A DNA stretch of 40,129 nucleotides from contig JAJCYI010000048.1 of NCBI GenBank assembly GCA_029263015.1, positions 1 through 40,129 of the forward strand, given 5' to 3'. Under the pieces are notes generated by a model. That model saw nothing but the letters and a program-made list of their open reading frames with translations. It did not search any database and had not been told where the DNA came from. Each line of letters begins with the position of its first letter. Within the stretch, counting starts at the first letter, position 1. The stretch is from Saprospiraceae bacterium (GTDB lineage: Bacteria > Bacteroidota > Bacteroidia > Chitinophagales > Saprospiraceae). Both the position numbers and the translations under genes were made by a program. Shown here piece after piece: positions 4,580 to 25,508 of the stretch.

Positions 4580-5140
4580 ATGGAAGTTTTAGAAAAATTG
4601 CTGACCTACCAAGCATACCGCAAAATGGAGTTCGATGAGGATGACAACTTCCAGTATGAACTGTTAAATGGCGTACTTATGAAAAAAGGCTCCCCAACCA
4701 TCCAACACCAACGAATTGCTGGCAATATCTACTTTCTGCTTCGGCTTTTTGTCGAAAAGAAAAAACTTGGCGAAGTTTTTACCACCCCGCTCAATGTGGT
4801 GCTCGACGAACACAACGCCCCGCAGCCCGACATCATTTTTATTGGCAATGACAAAAAACTTATCCTAAATGAAAACGAACAAGTAATCATAGGCATTCCC
4901 GACATTGTGGTTGAAGTACTTTCCCCTGGTTCTGTCAGAAGGGATCGTATAGACAAGAAAGCCATTTATGAAAAAGCAGGAGTACCCGAATACTGGATCG
5001 TTGACCCCAACTACAAAAACGTCGAGATTTACCACTTAAAGGAAGGCCGTTACGACCTGTTCGGTTTTGTTGAAGAAACAGGAATTGTCAAATCTTCCGT
5101 TTTAAAAGATTTCGAACTGGCCCTCAGCCAAATCTTCTAA
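4580..5140 (+). CDS. Uma2 family putative endonuclease
   Basis: A 186-aa protein of normal Uma2 (formerly DUF820) length. The restriction-endonuclease-like core is visible: E27 in YELLNG, D84 in QPDIIFIG, E112 in VVEVLSPGS, and a Lys near K127 before YEKAGVPEYWIVDP. Uma2 proteins have a PD-(D/E)xK fold and are predicted nucleases. They are often present in many copies per genome, and their biological role is unsettled. It stands alone with its own upstream region. Its stop is directly back-to-back with the stop of the convergent gene (no bases between). A second Uma2 gene is at 24903-25508; the two are diverged paralogs, not a recent duplication. Confidence 0.93.
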   Translation: MEVLEKLLTYQAYRKMEFDEDDNFQYELLNGVLMKKGSPTIQHQRIAGNIYFLLRLFVEKKKLGEVFTTPLNVVLDEHNAPQPDIIFIGNDKKLILNENEQVIIGIPDIVVEVLSPGSVRRDRIDKKAIYEKAGVPEYWIVDPNYKNVEIYHLKEGRYDLFGFVEETGIVKSSVLKDFELALSQIF

Positions 5141-9294: not shown

Positions 9295-9352
9295 GCCCTG
9301 CTATACAAAAAATCAATTCGCTGAAATTCGGAACTTATCTAATACTACTTAA

Positions 9353-10586
9353 TTGAAGAAGAATAAATTTTCAACCTGGAATCTTTCACCTTTGGTAGGC
9401 GGCACTTTCTTCAATCTGGTCAAATTAATATTTCAGCACCGGGTAGATGTAAAATTTTTACCCAGGTTAATACTTCCATTCTTAATAACCCCACTTACTT
9501 TCCCACTTAGGTGCTGGGGGCAGATAAGGGACAAATATTTTCATAAACCTGATTTGCCTCTGAAATCTCCACCATTGTTCATCATTGGTCATTGGCGAAG
9601 TGGGACTACTCATCTTCATAATATTTTATGCCAAGACTCAAACTCAAGTTTTGTTACGACTTATCAGTCGGTATTTCCGGATTTGCTTGGAGTCCAAATT
9701 TTTCTAAAAAAAATAATGGGATCCATGCTTAGTAAAAGAAAATAAATAACTTAGACCAACTCAATAAGCGTGACTTATTATTTTATTCAGATCTTCGTTT
9801 CACATGGTCTAAGTTATTGATTTCACTTTTCTTAATGAAACTCGGCCAGGAGATAATATAAGAATGAGTGTTGAAAGTCCTCAGGAAGATGAATTTGCAC
9901 TTAGCAACCTTAGCCCCTTTAACTATTATCATTTCATGTATTTCCCAAAAGAATACCAATTCTTTTATGATCGATATATAAGGTTTGAAACTCCGCCAGA
10001 TGTGTTAAATAAGTGGAAGAAAGTCTATCGTCAGTTAATTAATAAAACCTTACAAAACAACAAAGGAGAAAGGGTGATTTTAAAAAATCCGGTCAATACG
10101 GGCAGGGTAAAAGTATTATTAGATTTATTCCCTCAAGCTAAATTCATCTTTATTCACCGCAATCCTGTAGATGTATTTGTTTCTACAAAGAATTTTTTCT
10201 TACATCTTTTTCCAACATTGCAACTACAGCACATTACAGAAAAAGAAATCAACGATTTAATATTTGATGTGTATGAGAAAATAATGCGCGACTATCTCTC
10301 TCAACGTCACCTGATCCCTGACCGGAACCTGATCGAGGTTGGGTTTGATGATTTAGAGAAACAACCGCTCCCGCTGCTAAAGAAAATTTATGAAAAACTA
10401 AGCCTTGGAAATTTTGCAGATGTCGAGACCAAATTAGACGCTTATCTGAAAGGCAAAAGTAATTATCAAAAAAACAAGCACCACATTAGTCGGGAAGAAC
10501 TCAATCAGGTATTGGGCCAATGGCAATTTGCCATGGAAGAATGGAAGTACGAAATTTCAAAAAATACTAGTATTCTGGACTTTTGA
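9353..10586 (+). pseudogene. Sulfotransferase (Sulfotransfer_3 type), split by a small insertion
   Basis: Part 1 (9353-9745) begins with TTG directly after an in-frame stop and carries the PAPS-binding loop HWRSGTTHLHNILCQD. Part 2 is open through 9834-10586 (ATG at 9864) and reads TRPGDNIRMSVESPQEDEFALSN, then LKNPVNTGRVK and the 3'-phosphate-binding FIHRNPVDVFVSTKNFF. Family proteins run straight from the end of part 1 (SMLSK) into TRPxDN. The parts are separated by about 103 extra bases containing stops and an inverted repeat, which also change the frame (3n+1). Joined, the protein would be about 375 aa, normal for this family. As read, neither half holds both binding sites, so the product is probably inactive unless the insert is removed. 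Confidence 0.87.
9738..9837. repeat. MITE-like inverted-repeat insert in the sulfotransferase gene
   Basis: A 14-bp perfect inverted repeat (9745-9758 AATAACTTAGACCA, 9805-9818 its complement) extends imperfectly outward (GAAA...). It encloses a smaller AATAAG/CTTATT stem and has no coding capacity. The limits given are approximate: they are the bases whose removal restores the sulfotransferase frame. Short A-rich sequence (GAAA/AAA) occurs at both edges, but no clear target duplication can be called. The ends do not match the Tn3-element ends at 10620 and 14528. Confidence 0.6.
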
Positions 10587-10619
10587 CAATAGACAAATTT
10601 TGATTCCCCTTTAGTAAAT

Positions 10620-10658
10620 GGGGTAAATTCGGGATACGCCCAAAAAGTTGTCACTTCT
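10620..10658 (+). repeat. Tn3 element terminal inverted repeat, left
   Basis: 39 bp starting GGGGTAAATTCGGGATACGC and ending GTCACTTCT. It matches the complement of 14490-14528 except A/C at position 7. It overlaps the last codons and TGA stop of tnpA (stop at 10651-10653), so the transposase C-terminus is encoded by the repeat itself. Confidence 0.96.
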
Positions 10659-13626
10659 TCAAAAACATCAATTTAAGCAACTCTAAAGGCTTTGGAACAT
10701 CTCCATCATCCAAGAAATACTGCCCAAATCGCTTGATATGCTCCGTCAGATAGGGACTCAAAAAGGATAATAATTCAGGAGTAACTTCTTCACCATCTTT
10801 GACAAGTTTATCAATAGCTTTAGTCATGTCGGCTACATTGTGCAACATGACGGCATTGGCAATCAAGTCGATATATTTATTTCGTTTATGCTGCTCAACG
10901 GGGTCGCCAGTTGTAATAATAAATCCACCAAAAGTAATCCAGTCGTGGAAAAAATGGAAAGATTCTACCTTATTGGAGGTCGCTCGAATTTTTCGCCGCA
11001 TTCCTTCTGAATTTGCATATTCCAATAAAAAGATGGTTCGTATGACCCTTCCCAATTCACGAAAAGCCTTATAGAGTTTATTCTTCCGGCTATTCGTTCC
11101 CAGTTTTTGTAGTAGCATAGAAGGTAGCACCTTACCTTGGTTGATAGATATAACAACCTGCATGAGGTCTTTCCAATGAGTTTTGATTAAATCCCAATCA
11201 ATGGTATCCGTAAAAAGTTCATCAATATGTTTGTAGCTATCGTTTTTATCTACTTTGTAAAAGGTGACATCATTCCAGTTGCGCATCGTTGGCATCAACT
11301 GGATACCTAACAAATAAGACAAACCGAATACTGGTTCACTCTGACCTTGTGTATCAGCATGAACCGTATCTGGTTGCAGTTTTGAAGTATTTTTCATCAA
11401 ACCATCTAAAATATAGACTGCCTCCCAAACACCACAGGCAATAAAATTACAAAACAAAGCAACGTAAGTATCAGAGATATGGTGGTAGGCAATACCTCCA
11501 TATCCCTGATACCGAATGTGTTGCTCCCCAATTAAATTGTTTTGTATAAGCTGAATGTGTGTACCATCTGCTGCTGCACTTTTACCTGTTCCCCATAGAA
11601 AAGGTAAGTCAAACCGAGCGTAATGATTGATAATATCAGTTGAGGCTTCCTGTAATTTTTCAGGCGTAATATGCTGGTTATTAATTCGATTTAAAATGCG
11701 TGGCGTTATATCCCCTTTGATATGCTTGGCGGTTTGTGTCGCACCAAGATTGCAACCATAACCAAAAACAGTAAAAATATAACGGCCAATCGCATCTTTC
11801 ATCTTTGTTTTTGAGCCAGATGGGGGACCAAAATGTTTGGTAAAATTACTCCAATGCTGAACGTTTTTAAGTATATCCAATAGATGCCGTTCAGGCATTT
11901 GTCCTCGCATTCTCTTTTGGAATTCTTTGAGCCCTTCTGGTTTTTCTTTGGCTTTTAGCCGCTTTAAATGAGGCTGTCCAAACTCATCAATTGTGAAATG
12001 AGTGTTCTCTGGAAATAAGCCATCTGTTTGTTGGCAGGCTTTTCTAAGTTTTTCTTGAAGCGTAGATATAAACTCATCCGCTGTATTGGGCAGACCAACA
12101 CCTTCACAATATTCATCCAAATAAGTCAAGCATTCTTCCCAAGGTAATAATTGCGCTCTAAAATCTGTAAATTCTTCTGACCCTGTTGCATATAAATCGC
12201 CACATCGAATAGCATCTGCCAAATGAGACAATATACAAACCTCCAATTCCCGACGTTTGAACACTGTTCTGCCTTCGTGTTTTGTTTGTACATAAGCCTT
12301 CCAACGATTTGATAAAAAATCCAACTTGATGGATTTGGGCAGATAATCACGTTTAGCGTTTTGATATTGTTTAATAAATTCAAAAGCGGCCAATAAACCT
12401 GTATCTTCAGTAGCTGATTTGATTTCCAACAAATTCAATAATTGATAAATAGCTTTTCGGTGCGCCCTATGTTTATTCCATAATAAAGGTAGGTGGTTAT
12501 TGCCATGATAGACAGATACAATTTTATATCTTTTGGAAATAGTGTCTGCCCCACCATATTCATCCAAAATATTCCTGACCCGCTTACCAAGTACACTATC
12601 CTTGGATTCTTTTGCCGCAGAATCAACAACTTGATTAAGCGTTTCCATCATTTGTTCTTCCCAAAGCCGATATTCCGTTTTCAAGTTTTCCAATTGTTCT
12701 TTGGCCCGGTTATGCGTTTGCCGCATCCGTTTCAAAAACATATTTATCAATTCATCCCGTGTCTTCATTTGGGCTTCAGACAAGAAGCACAATAAAAAGG
12801 TGTACCGTTTGTCGGGGTTGTTAATATCTTTTATATCGCCTACCTCCAATTGTTTAGCTTGTGAGGCAAACTGCCGAATCTTGGTATATTTTATATGCTT
12901 AATAAAATCGGTCGGTTGGATTATAGTATTTAACCAATCCAATCGCTGCCCCCATAACCTCATCTGTTTGAGGGTGTTTCTTCCTGGAGATGCTTTAATT
13001 TTTGTAAAACCACTTTTGTAACCTTCTCCCTGAACGATTAACAGATCATCCAATTTTTGTTTATCTTCTACTGTTAAGAATTGGGCTGTTTGCTCATATA
13101 TCTGTCCATGTACTATCTGGCGAATATGCTTGGCGGCATCATCCAATCTTCTAAAAGCAGGTATTTCATATTTGTTATCAGCAAGTGTTTTCAGCGCAAT
13201 ATTGATTAAATCCGCAGGGTCGCTCATCGTAAAAGCTGCTTTTTCCATTGCTTCCATGATGAGCTGTTCTGCTTGTTCTGACCAAGGTTGAACCGTTAAA
13301 AACTGTCGAACAGCTTTTCTATATCTGTGAAAGGAAGTTTTATTGGTTTCTGTTTCTTCTAATGACTCGACAGTCTCCGATAATTCCAACTGCTTAGATA
13401 AATACTGCTGAACCTGATTGGGAACTTTACTTAAAGAGGTTGTTCGACCTAAATACTGATGTGCCTTTAATAATATCAAAAGAGTAAGATTGCCACTTGG
13501 TTTTCTGGAGCGAACTTTGACAAATTTGAGTTCTTCACCCGTTGGGTCAAATAGTTTTTGTAAATCTTCTTTAGCTAAAATTTCATTGGTGAATCTGGGA
13601 TAAGCCGTTTGCCCGATTGATGCCAT
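10651..13626 (-). CDS. tnpA: Tn3-family DDE transposase
   Basis: A 991-aa protein, usual Tn3 TnpA size, starting MASIGQTAYPRF at 13626. The N-terminal ~170 residues correspond to the DUF4158 DNA-binding part (KLFDPTGEELKFV..., GNLTLLILLKAHQYLGR). The C-terminal catalytic region carries Asp687 (SAAADGTHIQL), Asp758 (DTVHADTQGQSEPVFG) and Glu888 (SNKVESFHFFHDW), in spacing close to Tn3 itself. It binds the 39-bp ends, cuts and joins them to target DNA, and generates a cointegrate by replicative transposition with a 5-bp duplication. It is divergent from the recombinase gene, and promoters for both must lie in the 146-bp gap. No frame damage is seen, in contrast to several nearby chromosomal genes. 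Confidence 0.97.
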   Translation of the reverse strand: MASIGQTAYPRFTNEILAKEDLQKLFDPTGEELKFVKVRSRKPSGNLTLLILLKAHQYLGRTTSLSKVPNQVQQYLSKQLELSETVESLEETETNKTSFHRYRKAVRQFLTVQPWSEQAEQLIMEAMEKAAFTMSDPADLINIALKTLADNKYEIPAFRRLDDAAKHIRQIVHGQIYEQTAQFLTVEDKQKLDDLLIVQGEGYKSGFTKIKASPGRNTLKQMRLWGQRLDWLNTIIQPTDFIKHIKYTKIRQFASQAKQLEVGDIKDINNPDKRYTFLLCFLSEAQMKTRDELINMFLKRMRQTHNRAKEQLENLKTEYRLWEEQMMETLNQVVDSAAKESKDSVLGKRVRNILDEYGGADTISKRYKIVSVYHGNNHLPLLWNKHRAHRKAIYQLLNLLEIKSATEDTGLLAAFEFIKQYQNAKRDYLPKSIKLDFLSNRWKAYVQTKHEGRTVFKRRELEVCILSHLADAIRCGDLYATGSEEFTDFRAQLLPWEECLTYLDEYCEGVGLPNTADEFISTLQEKLRKACQQTDGLFPENTHFTIDEFGQPHLKRLKAKEKPEGLKEFQKRMRGQMPERHLLDILKNVQHWSNFTKHFGPPSGSKTKMKDAIGRYIFTVFGYGCNLGATQTAKHIKGDITPRILNRINNQHITPEKLQEASTDIINHYARFDLPFLWGTGKSAAADGTHIQLIQNNLIGEQHIRYQGYGGIAYHHISDTYVALFCNFIACGVWEAVYILDGLMKNTSKLQPDTVHADTQGQSEPVFGLSYLLGIQLMPTMRNWNDVTFYKVDKNDSYKHIDELFTDTIDWDLIKTHWKDLMQVVISINQGKVLPSMLLQKLGTNSRKNKLYKAFRELGRVIRTIFLLEYANSEGMRRKIRATSNKVESFHFFHDWITFGGFIITTGDPVEQHKRNKYIDLIANAVMLHNVADMTKAIDKLVKDGEEVTPELLSFLSPYLTEHIKRFGQYFLDDGDVPKPLELLKLMFLKK

Positions 13627-13660
13627 GTTCCAATATTTTATTTAAAAGAGAAAAATTGAA

Positions 13661-13770
13661 TTTCGCATAAGGGGCAGAGTGCGAAGCTCAAGGGTGTTTT
13701 TAATCAAAAACCGCTTCTTTTTTTGCCAAAAAAGTATTACTTTTTCGCCACTCAAAATAAAGATGCGAAA
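13661..13770. other. Candidate internal resolution site of the transposon
   Basis: Between tnpA and tnpI, TTCGCA (13662-13667) and TGCGAA (13680-13685) form an inverted pair 12 bp apart. A further TGCGAAA copy lies at 13764-13770, touching the tnpI start. An inverted pair plus a nearby direct copy resembles the core-plus-accessory layout of TnpI internal resolution sites. The site would be where the tyrosine recombinase resolves cointegrates, and occupancy could also repress both divergent promoters. The assignment rests on repeat pattern and position only. Confidence 0.5.
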
Positions 13771-13772
13771 CT

Positions 13773-14465
13773 ATGGAATCATCGGATTTTAAGCCAATTA
13801 TCAATCTTCTTGCGAAGAAGTTTGCCAAACAGAATGTTAGCTATAGCCAGTCTCAATATATTTTTAAAGAGGTCAGGAAAAAATTAGAGCTTAAACCAGA
13901 AAAGAAAAACAAGGGAACAGTCAAACGATTGTCCAGAAAAGAACATCAAGATTTTATTAATGCCGCCTATGAAAAATCGTCCAAAGTAGGGCTGATGATG
14001 CAAACCTTGTTTGAGACAGCAGCGAGAGTGGATGAATTTACTTCCCTCAATGCCGATGATGTTTATTTTAATGAATTGAGGATTGTCGTCCGTTCAGGAA
14101 AAGGGAGTAAACGCAGGGAAGTCCCTATTGAAGAAAATTTAGGCAGATTGTTATCTACTCATTTAAAGGATAGAAAAAGTGGTCCTATTTTTAGAACCCG
14201 TAGAAATGAGCGGTACACCAATCGGCGCATCCAACAAATTGTAAAAGAGATTGCCAGCAATGCTCAAATTTATTCGTTGGAGGTTACGCCTCATACACTT
14301 CGACACACCAGAGCTACTTTTTTAGCCGAGGACGGGATGGCGAAAGATTATTTGCAAGTCTTTTTAGGGCATGACCAACCTGACACCACACAAATTTATA
14401 CGAACACCGCAGCAATAGATACTCAAAAGGCTTTTTATGATGCGGTTGCAAATAGTCAACGATGA
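13773..14465 (+). CDS. tnpI: Tyrosine recombinase, TnpI-type cointegrate resolvase
   Basis: A 230-aa tyrosine recombinase. The catalytic set is visible: Arg85 (ETAARVDEF), Lys110 (RSGKGSKRREVPI), His174 and Arg177 (HTLRHTRATFLAEDG), His200 (LGHDQPDTTQIY) and nucleophile Tyr209. The N-terminal SAM-like core-binding domain is short (~50 residues), so the protein is compact beside XerC/D (~300 aa). Inside a Tn3-type element with no serine resolvase, its role is site-specific resolution of transposition cointegrates at the site between the two genes. The gene symbol follows the Tn4430 system by analogy. The frame is intact and the stop is 25 bp from the right terminal repeat. Confidence 0.92.
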   Translation: MESSDFKPIINLLAKKFAKQNVSYSQSQYIFKEVRKKLELKPEKKNKGTVKRLSRKEHQDFINAAYEKSSKVGLMMQTLFETAARVDEFTSLNADDVYFNELRIVVRSGKGSKRREVPIEENLGRLLSTHLKDRKSGPIFRTRRNERYTNRRIQQIVKEIASNAQIYSLEVTPHTLRHTRATFLAEDGMAKDYLQVFLGHDQPDTTQIYTNTAAIDTQKAFYDAVANSQR

Positions 14466-14489
14466 GGTGCTAAAATTGACCGCTTCTGT

Positions 14490-14528
14490 AGAAGTGACAA
14501 CTTTTTGGGCGTATCCCGAATGTACCCC
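14490..14528 (-). repeat. Tn3 element terminal inverted repeat, right
   Basis: 39 bp ending in CCCC at 14528, the complement of the left end with one difference. It is followed immediately by TAAAT, the duplicated target. Confidence 0.96.
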
Positions 14529-14533
14529 TAAAT

Positions 14534-14809
14534 GGAGTCATTTATTGAGTAAAAGCACCCAACCGAGGCCTTGTTAAAATTAGCAGACTCCTCAAATAGT
14601 GATCGGCCTGAAATTACGGAAGCAAGGGCATTTGTAGGACAGGGAGATCGTTGATTAACGTGAGTTATCCAGTAAAATGTGCAACTCTTTACTGGATACT
14701 TCCGCTATCAAAGGTTCGTGAAGGTTTTGACACAAATTTTCACAAATTTCACAAATTGTTGACTATCAACATTTTTTAAAACCTTCACGAACCTTTGACT
14801 ATCATTCTT
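14534..14809. other. Gene-free stretch with two hairpins
   Basis: No credible open frame. It holds an 11-bp inverted repeat TATCCAGTAAA (14666-14676 / 14688-14698) and a larger hairpin at 14708-14798. It contains the original chromosomal sequence flanking the transposon target. Confidence 0.7.
14708..14798 (-). repeat. 21-bp inverted repeat with AT-rich loop, 3' of the small secreted gene
   Basis: Arms 14708-14728 and 14778-14798 are perfect complements (core GGTTCGTGAAGGTTTT). The 49-nt loop contains three CACAAATT repeats. It starts 12 nt after the repaired stop (14810) of the minus-strand gene, so it probably ends or protects that transcript. Confidence 0.78.
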
Positions 14810-24902: not shown

Positions 24903-25508
24903 ATGAAATCCATACTTGAAAAAGAAAAAACCTATAGCTTCGAGGAATACCTTGCCCTTGAAGAGAAGTCAGAAGAAAAACACGAATTTAACAACGGAAA
25001 ACTTAACCCTATGGCCGGAGGAACATTTAACCACAATACTATTGCCAATGCTATTGGTGCCTTACTTTATAATTTCATTATTGCTGTTAATAAAAACTGC
25101 CAAGTTGCTAATAGTGACATGAAAATTCATATTCCTATTACCAATAGGAGCGTTTACCCCGATGTAACTGTCATTTGTAACGATCCTGATTTTTATCTGA
25201 ATAGTCCCTCCGTCATCTCCAACCCCCAGCTCATCGTCGAAGTACTTTCAGAAAGCACCGCCGAATACGACCGCACCACCAAATTTGAAAATTATTGCTC
25301 CATCCCCACCTTCCGCGAGTACCTGCTGGTCGCACAAGACCGCCCTTTCGTTGAGGCATTCTACCTCCACGATCCAGAAACTGCCCTTTGGAAAATCTCT
25401 AGGGCTTCTGGCTTGGATGCATCCATCAAATTGTTGTCCATTGATTGCACTTTGGAATTGAAAGATGTTTACCGGATGGCAAAAGATTTGAAAGAAGTAC
25501 AGATTTAA
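24903..25508 (+). CDS. Uma2 family putative endonuclease
   Basis: A 201-aa protein with the full Uma2 active-site pattern: E28 in KHEFNNGKL, D87 in VYPDVTVI, E113 in LIVEVLSEST and K127 in TTKFENYCSIPTFREYLLV. The ANAIG...NCQVANSDMKI region follows the family. It is predicted to be a PD-(D/E)xK nuclease; the biological role of Uma2 proteins is unresolved. It is diverged from the Uma2 protein at 4580-5140 and shares little beyond the core motifs, so the two are old paralogs or separate arrivals. It ends 28 bp before a strong bidirectional terminator and is divergent from ddaH. Confidence 0.93.
   Translation: MKSILEKEKTYSFEEYLALEEKSEEKHEFNNGKLNPMAGGTFNHNTIANAIGALLYNFIIAVNKNCQVANSDMKIHIPITNRSVYPDVTVICNDPDFYLNSPSVISNPQLIVEVLSESTAEYDRTTKFENYCSIPTFREYLLVAQDRPFVEAFYLHDPETALWKISRASGLDASIKLLSIDCTLELKDVYRMAKDLKEVQI

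What the first reader, a model, noticed from the sequence alone, without database searches (positions are those of the whole stretch)
10615..14533. Intact minimal Tn3-family transposon with a tyrosine recombinase in a Bacteroidota genome
Seen: 39-bp ends with one difference, perfect TAAAT target duplication, an undamaged DDE transposase (D687, D758, E888) and a compact tyrosine recombinase (R85, K110, H174, R177, H200, Y209), with no other gene. Known: Tn4430-type elements use TnpI rather than a serine resolvase, described mainly in Bacillus. Inference: this is a complete active or recently active element of that plan in an environmental Bacteroidota lineage, useful as a baseline unit without passengers.
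Basis: partly seen in the sequence, partly recalled or inferred. Interest (0 to 1): 0.75.

Follow-up and report, generated by a model that had tools for sequence, protein, structure and literature searches.

The report
Jumping gene with borrowed finishing enzyme
This is a small, apparently intact bacterial jumping gene of the well-known Tn3 family in which the usual finishing enzyme (a serine resolvase in its nearest relatives) seems to have been replaced by a compact tyrosine recombinase plus DNA site that also turns up beside unrelated transposases, which suggests that such finishing modules are passed between transposons as ready-made units.

Summary
In detail: 39-bp inverted repeats with one difference, a TAAAT duplication, an open 991-aa Tn3 transposase and a 230-aa tyrosine recombinase, one copy found in the genome. 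The Tn4430 interpretation is not supported: the genes are divergent, and the transposase (with its ends) nests among elements that carry a divergent serine resolvase (Simkania, Sinorhizobium, Shinella, another genome of the phylum). The recombinase is 79% identical to one on an Aureispira plasmid beside a different Tn3 transposase (25% identical, other ends); DNA similarity (76% over 765 bp) begins at a 28-bp dyad between the genes. The same small recombinase family sits beside ISKra4-type transposases (9 of 26 loci examined), beside two further Tn3 transposases, and without a detected transposase on Salinibacter plasmids. Upstream of the gene 7 of 17 loci hold two dyads 80-93 bp apart. Best reading: a Tn3-family element whose resolution module was swapped for a portable Xer-like recombinase plus two-dyad site, acting as cointegrate resolvase. 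It is neither the TnpI plan nor TnpS+TnpT; recombination itself is inferred, not shown. New variant of a known kind.

The parts
10615..10619 (.). left copy of target duplication TAAAT
10620..10658 (.). left terminal inverted repeat, 39 bp (similarity with the right end continues to about 10683)
   Evidence: 28/39 identical to the end beside the Simkania transposase, 24/39 to Shinella, 23/39 to Sinorhizobium, 19/39 to Gloeothece, random 39-mers 99.9 percentile 18, maximum 23
10651..13626 (-). tnpA, Tn3-family DDE transposase, 991 aa; stop codon lies inside the left end
13627..13772 (.). intergenic resolution region (candidate res)
13660..13687 (.). site I: 28-bp dyad (11+6+11), candidate crossover site; similarity with the Aureispira element starts exactly here
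   Evidence: no other copy in the genome (up to 3 mismatches, pattern typed out of register)
13742..13771 (.). site II: 30-bp dyad (11+8+11) one base before the recombinase start codon, candidate accessory or regulatory site
13773..14465 (+). compact tyrosine recombinase, 230 aa, R85 K110 H174 R177 H200 Y209
13660..14423 (.). stretch 75.6% identical in DNA to the Aureispira plasmid element, i.e. the presumed exchanged module
14490..14528 (.). right terminal inverted repeat, 39 bp
14529..14533 (.). right copy of target duplication TAAAT

Best explanation
A complete minimal Tn3-family transposon built of two modules of different ancestry. The transposition module (tnpA plus its 39-bp ends) belongs to a lineage whose nearest members found here carry a divergent serine resolvase. 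The resolution module (a 230-aa Xer-like tyrosine recombinase with a two-dyad site in the intergenic region) has replaced that serine resolvase in the same slot and orientation. Working model: TnpA joins donor and target by replicative transposition into a cointegrate (inferred from the family; the 5-bp duplication is seen); the recombinase binds the TTTCGCA-type arms of site I (crossover) and site II (accessory, and because it lies one base before the start codon also autoregulation), recombines the two directly repeated copies of site I and releases donor and target each with one element. The same small recombinase family accompanies other Tn3 lineages and ISKra4-type elements, so it behaves as a portable resolution cassette. 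Shown: anatomy, module mismatch, shared DNA beginning at site I, dyads shared by part of the family. Inferred: binding, crossover at site I, resolvase function, direction of the swap.
For: TnpA tree of 23 rows: the window row lies with G231_ser, SimkaniaA, Sinorhizobium and Shinella (92/92), all four with a divergent recombinase gene of the serine type (positions; PF00239 in all four). The wider set of 10 rows (100/100) has 6 serine (those four plus Priestia and Polaromonas), the window, 1 other small tyrosine recombinase (Gloeothece), 2 undetermined. The ends go with that TnpA lineage. Recombinase: 79% identical to Aureispira P0004, whose TnpA is 25% identical to the window's and is sister to a second, interrupted Simkania TnpA (100/100) next to a serine resolvase. 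Four TnpA beside this recombinase family are not one clade, p-AU 7e-47. Recombinase tree: window plus Aureispira 100/99. DNA similarity begins at site I. Both dyads, 80-82 or 92-93 bp apart, in 7 of 17 loci, at least one in 9 of 17, against 0.002-0.028 expected per resampled 330-bp stretch. ISKra4-type transposase plus PRiA4_ORF3 with the recombinase in 9 of 26 loci; the Rhizobium element is bounded by ends of about 24 bp with different flanks in two genomes.
Against: No experiment. 8 of 17 loci fail the strict dyad pattern, and the pattern was chosen after looking; three Salinibacter rows are near copies and the window and Aureispira are homologous, so the 7 are perhaps 4 independent cases. 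The resampling keeps neighbour frequencies only on average. The Aureispira element has perfect 39-bp ends but no 5-bp duplication was seen, so its completeness is less sure. In 11 of 26 family loci no transposase of the kinds queried was found nearby, so resolution of transposon cointegrates is not the family's only likely job. Direction of the swap rests on few rows, one of them an N-terminal fragment; on the TnpA tree the starred branches force at least three changes of label, which could in principle be one gain and two losses. The start of similarity at site I is only 20-33 bp from two unrelated tnpA genes, so it need not mark a crossover.
Confidence: 0.72

Rival explanations
1. The recombinase is cargo or a plasmid-type multimer-resolution gene that happens to lie in the element; cointegrates are resolved by host Xer or homologous recombination.
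For: Relatives on three Salinibacter plasmids examined stand without a transposase of the kinds queried nearby. Similarity to XerA/XerC/XerD.
Against: It sits in the slot and orientation of the serine resolvase of the nearest relatives; no other recombinase gene in the element; family members also stand beside two other Tn3 transposases (L034, G231) and ISKra4-type transposases; two dyads between the genes.
Confidence: 0.15
2. A member of the Tn4430/TnpI plan in Bacteroidota, descended vertically from such elements.
For: Tyrosine recombinase, no passenger, the only solved homologue of TnpA by sequence is that of Tn4430.
Against: TnpA does not group with the Tn4430-like row; divergent instead of colinear genes; two inverted pairs. 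The solved-structure hit reflects what has been solved. TnpI itself could not be compared: the best match to the Tn4430 transposase fragment in the plasmid collection was 71%.
Confidence: 0.05
3. The tyrosine recombinase is ancestral in this TnpA lineage and the serine resolvases of the relatives are later arrivals.
For: A cyanobacterial member of the wider set (Gloeothece) also has a small tyrosine recombinase.
Against: That recombinase is only 22% identical in the alignment and matches by BLASTP over 75 columns; the nearest four rows are serine.
Confidence: 0.07
4. Assembly chimera or chance arrangement.
For: Single copy, 245 contigs.
Against: Matching ends and duplication, open genes, and an independent plasmid with the same resolution module.
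Confidence: 0.01

Closest known systems
Tn3-family elements with divergent serine resolvase on Simkania pSn, Sinorhizobium fredii and Shinella plasmids (Tn163-like by recall only)
   Same: TnpA 49-50% identical over the whole length, related ends, divergent recombinase gene
   Different: serine resolvase (PF00239) instead of tyrosine recombinase (PF00589)
Unnamed element on Aureispira anguillae plasmid pAUEb (NZ_AP026869)
   Same: recombinase 79% identical, both dyads and divergent layout, DNA 75.6% identical from site I on
   Different: TnpA only 25% identical, other 39-bp ends
Tn4430 / Tn5401 (TnpI)
   Same: Tn3 transposase with a tyrosine recombinase as resolvase; inverted core plus accessory motifs (PMC7157771, passages)
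   Different: colinear genes, TnpI about 284 aa (recalled), direct-repeat accessory sites; Tn4430-like TnpA on another branch
Tn4651 / TnXax1 (TnpS+TnpT)
   Same: tyrosine recombinase; site with two inverted pairs (PMC7157771, passage)
   Different: two components, divergent from each other; presumed TnpS of pWW0 (identified by recall; annotated site-specific integrase) shows no BLASTP similarity (E 13) and only weak profile similarity (hhalign probability 54%)
ISKra4 family, ISAzba1 group with pRiA4_ORF3
   Same: carries the same recombinase family, divergent from the transposase; a tyrosine recombinase in one such element was reported and a role in cointegrate resolution suggested (PMC3942029, passage)
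   Different: unrelated transposase, ends of about 24 bp; that the loci seen here belong to the ISAzba1 group rather than ISKra4 at large is inferred from the PRiA4_ORF3 gene

Membership tests
Tn3 family | Tn3-type DDE transposase of about 950-1000 aa | tested here: met
   NF033527 714 bits (cut-off 500); D687 D758 E888
Tn3 family | 38-40-bp ends starting GGGG | tested here: met
   (GGGG start and 38-bp length of Tn3 recalled)
Tn3 family | 5-bp target duplication | tested here: met
   TAAAT on both sides
Tn3 family | replicative transposition through a cointegrate | not testable with these tools
   bench assay needed
Tn4430 subgroup / TnpI plan | TnpA in the Tn4430 subgroup | tested here: not met
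   Tn4430-like row identified
Tn4430 subgroup / TnpI plan | recombinase and transposase genes colinear | tested here: not met
   divergent
Tn4430 subgroup / TnpI plan | recombinase orthologous to TnpI | not tested
   no TnpI sequence obtained
Tn4430 subgroup / TnpI plan | irs with IR1-IR2 plus direct repeats DR1-DR2 | tested here: not met
   two inverted pairs instead; weaker direct repeats were not searched for with a model
TnpS+TnpT type | recombinase related to TnpS, with divergent TnpT helper | tested here: not met
   the element has only two genes
Serine-resolvase (TnpR) Tn3 lineage of Simkania/Sinorhizobium | TnpA and ends of that lineage | tested here: met
Serine-resolvase (TnpR) Tn3 lineage of Simkania/Sinorhizobium | serine resolvase | tested here: not met
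   recombinase is Phage_integrase, the relatives' are Resolvase PF00239
Tyrosine recombinases (Xer-like) | R-K-H-R-H-Y active site and catalytic fold | tested here: met
   model pLDDT 85.6; best PDB match XerA 5hxy E 9e-12
Tyrosine recombinases (Xer-like) | full four-helix core-binding domain (recalled) | tested here: not met
   only two helices modelled before the catalytic domain, 7-19 and 24-37 (alignment of 8 sequences)

The most novel reading that the evidence does not exclude
A fourth class of Tn3 resolution system: a one-component mini-Xer recombinase with a two-dyad, roughly helically phased site (80-82 or 92-93 bp apart) that is transposase-agnostic. It serves at least three Tn3 lineages, ISKra4-type elements and plasmids, and spreads between them as a cassette, possibly by recombination at its own site I.
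Probability: 0.5. Interest if true: 0.68.

Novelty: new variant of a known kind. Interest (0 to 1): 0.52.

Why it matters
A 2020 survey names three resolvase types for the Tn3 family and finds TnpI in only three of 190 elements (PMC7157771, passages). This element and its plasmid cousin pair one recombinase and site with two deeply different transposases, so modular exchange of resolution systems becomes directly testable. The link of the same recombinase to ISKra4-type transposases gives a concrete handle on whether those elements too pass through cointegrates, as PMC3942029 suggested (passage). The minimal recombinase could also be a compact site-specific tool.

Tried and rejected
Tn4430 membership (rejected by the TnpA tree and layout). 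TnpS kinship. Empty-site search: the left flank 9300-10619 gave three repeat matches in the own genome and one 58-bp match in one of 99 relatives; the right flank was searched in the own genome only. The viral-contig scan with the recombinase kept 80 loci at 26-40% identity; none looked closer than the plasmid and genome hits and they were not followed, beyond a tblastn with the two transposases that found none there. Gloeothece recombinase as a family member: rejected at 22%. TnpI comparison: not possible. The core-site search in the genome used a pattern out of register and found only the window site at 3 mismatches, so it is weak evidence for the absence of solo sites. One search counted one plasmid record at 60-80% TnpA identity that is not in its listed rows; a search with the C-terminal 292 residues gave 64-65% for rhizobial records as the best listed rows, so I take it to be a partial match of that kind; it was not itself seen. 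The plasmid searches stopped at 5000 records. Literature searches for this arrangement; no listed title describes it; only passages of PMC7157771 and PMC3942029 were read, the rest were seen as listings.

Rows dropped before counts: L037 (reading frame broken across three frames) was left out of the recombinase tree and the dyad count; L028 and L029 (100% identical to L027 over 3159 bp) and L036 likewise; L025-L027, L030, L033 and L035 were left out of the dyad count because no start codon was fixed; L032 (99% DNA to L020 over 3161 bp) was kept in the dyad count but not in the tree. Of the 80 genome loci kept only L021-L037 (17, the long high-scoring matches) were followed. The TnpA rows are a hand-picked sample of the hits, not a random one.
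Full report
What is there. Between two copies of TAAAT (10615-10619, 14529-14533) lies a 3909-bp unit with 39-bp inverted ends that differ at one base. It holds two genes: tnpA on the minus strand (10651-13626, 991 aa, Tn3 DDE transposase) and a 230-aa tyrosine recombinase on the plus strand (13773-14465). Two other frames of 100-106 codons lie on the opposite strand inside tnpA and are not taken as genes. The genes are divergent, 146 bp apart. One copy in the genome. G+C is 38.4% against 47.4% around it, and in 99 related genomes, 13 of the same genus, there is no TnpA match at 1e-60 and no recombinase match at 1e-40, so it looks like a recent arrival. In 395 genomes drawn from the phylum, 17 have a PF01526 match at 0.001 (15 over the curated cut-off) and 2, the own one included, a TnpA match at 1e-100.

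The transposition module. Best plasmid relatives of TnpA are 49-50% identical over the whole length: Sinorhizobium, Simkania and Shinella elements. Each has a divergent recombinase gene of the serine type (Pfam Resolvase PF00239). A genome of the same phylum (G231) has a TnpA match at 46% and 63% in two pieces about 9 kb apart; beside the N-terminal piece stands a divergent serine resolvase 64% identical to that of Sinorhizobium. In a tree of 23 TnpA rows the window row and these four form one set (92/92) inside a set of ten (100/100: six serine, the window, one other small tyrosine recombinase in Gloeothece, two undetermined). The Tn4430-like row (identified by its 1824-bit match to the solved Tn4430 transposase) is far away. 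The ends match the same relatives: 28, 24 and 23 of 39 positions for Simkania, Shinella and Sinorhizobium against a random 99.9 percentile of 18 and a maximum of 23 in 20,000 draws. So tnpA and ends belong to a serine-resolvase lineage; the name Tn163-like is recall only.

The resolution module. The recombinase is 79% identical to one on the Aureispira anguillae plasmid pAUEb. That gene too is divergent from a Tn3 transposase, but this one is 25% identical to the window's, has other ends, and is sister to a second, interrupted Simkania transposase (100/100) that stands beside a serine resolvase. The DNA of the two elements is similar (75.6% over 765 columns) only from window position 13660 to 14423, that is from the first base of a 28-bp dyad (ATTTCGCATAA-GGGGCA-GAGTGCGAAGC) through most of the recombinase gene. 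A second dyad of 30 bp ends one base before the start codon.

The dyads. With the pattern TTCG[CT]N12-18[AG]CGAA in about 320 bp upstream of 17 family members, 7 have both dyads (window, Aureispira, G231, G388, Salinibacter L017-L019), start to start 82, 81, 80, 82, 92, 93, 92 bp; 2 more have one; 8 have none. Expected hits per resampled stretch are 0.002-0.028. The pattern was chosen after inspection, and the Salinibacter rows are near copies. Several of the eight have dyads with other arms (by eye). The two spacings differ by about one helical turn, which would suit a synaptic complex; this is inference.

Who else carries it. In 26 loci with family members searched with seven query proteins a Tn3 transposase stands beside the gene in 3 (Aureispira divergent; Bryobacterales L034 and G231 colinear, as in Tn4430), so 4 with the window; an ISKra4-type transposase (divergent; the name is from the annotation of L020) with a PRiA4_ORF3 gene in 9, all from proteobacteria (L020, L025-L029, L031-L033, of which L028 and L029 copy L027 and L032 nearly copies L020); an rve-type transposase in 2 (L023, L024); a DDE_Tnp_1 transposase in 1 (L021); none of these in the other 11. 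The ISKra4-type unit is a real mobile unit: two Rhizobium records share 3161 bp at 99% with different flanks and inverted ends of about 24 bp. The Tn3 transposases of the four Tn3 cases are not one clade (p-AU 7e-47), while window and Aureispira recombinases are sisters (100/99) and G231's falls in a set with G388, G199 and the Salinibacter ones (100/99). The places of the G231 and Bryobacterales transposases in the TnpA tree are not firm (support 77/73 and 76/70 around them).

How it probably works. TnpA makes a cointegrate; the recombinase recombines site I of the two directly repeated copies, helped by site II, and separates the replicons. Site II, next to the start codon, may also shut the gene off. 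The model of the protein (pLDDT 85.6) shows a tyrosine-recombinase catalytic domain, best matched by XerA, preceded by only two helices instead of a full core-binding domain. None of the biochemical steps was tested.

What is known. [quoted passage not shown] A passage of PMC3942029 reports one tyrosine recombinase among ISAzba1-group elements and suggests cointegrate resolution. The present module is not TnpS-like (the TnpS row is identified by recall); kinship to TnpI could not be tested. So the swapping of modules at resolution sites is a known idea; this particular portable recombinase and site, paired with two deeply different Tn3 transposases and with ISKra4-type elements, was not seen in the listings of the seven literature searches made, which cover only an open-licence library.

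Verdict. The element is real and intact in sequence. It probably works like Tn4430 in using a tyrosine recombinase for resolution, but it is not a member of that plan; it is a serine-lineage Tn3 element with an exchanged, Xer-like resolution module. New variant of a known kind, of moderate interest.

Noticed in passing
window 9728-9832: A repeat of about 105 bp, 11 copies at 95-100% in the genome (own included, 40 of 55 candidates scored), with short duplications of TTA type at several copies and partly matching inverted ends (by eye). It separates two pieces of a sulfotransferase gene (9353-9745 and 9864-10586). Eight further short matches to one end, three of them about 110 bp from contig starts, suggest a MITE mobilised by an insertion sequence on which the assembly breaks.
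   Followed up: partly
window 14708-14798: A perfect 21-bp inverted repeat with 49 bp between the arms, just right of the transposon; partial copies at 86% on contigs C155 and C208 and at 78% on C215.
   Followed up: partly
window 10620-10683 and 14464-14528: The two ends are similar beyond the 39 bp, to about 64 bp at 88%; on the left this covers the 3' end of tnpA, as if the right end had been copied from the left.
   Followed up: no
L237 1832-2446: A Gloeothece Tn3-family element (TnpA 43.8% to the window) has another short tyrosine recombinase of 204 aa, colinear and only 22% identical to the window's: a separate tyrosine-type recombinase in the same wider TnpA clade.
   Followed up: partly
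L238 1-2293: Three consecutive tyrosine recombinase genes directly upstream of a Tn3 transposase in Paraburkholderia.
   Followed up: no
L181 and L225 (G231 C10): One contig holds several Tn3 transposase stretches with different recombinases, one (window-like) in two pieces 9 kb apart, another colinear with a recombinase of the window's family.
   Followed up: partly
L242 (CP079755): A plasmid filed under Klebsiella grimontii carries a Tn4430-like transposase next to a collagen-like protein gene; unusual company that may point to a mixed assembly.
   Followed up: no
window 4580-5140 and 24903-25508: Two Uma2-type nuclease-like genes.
   Followed up: no
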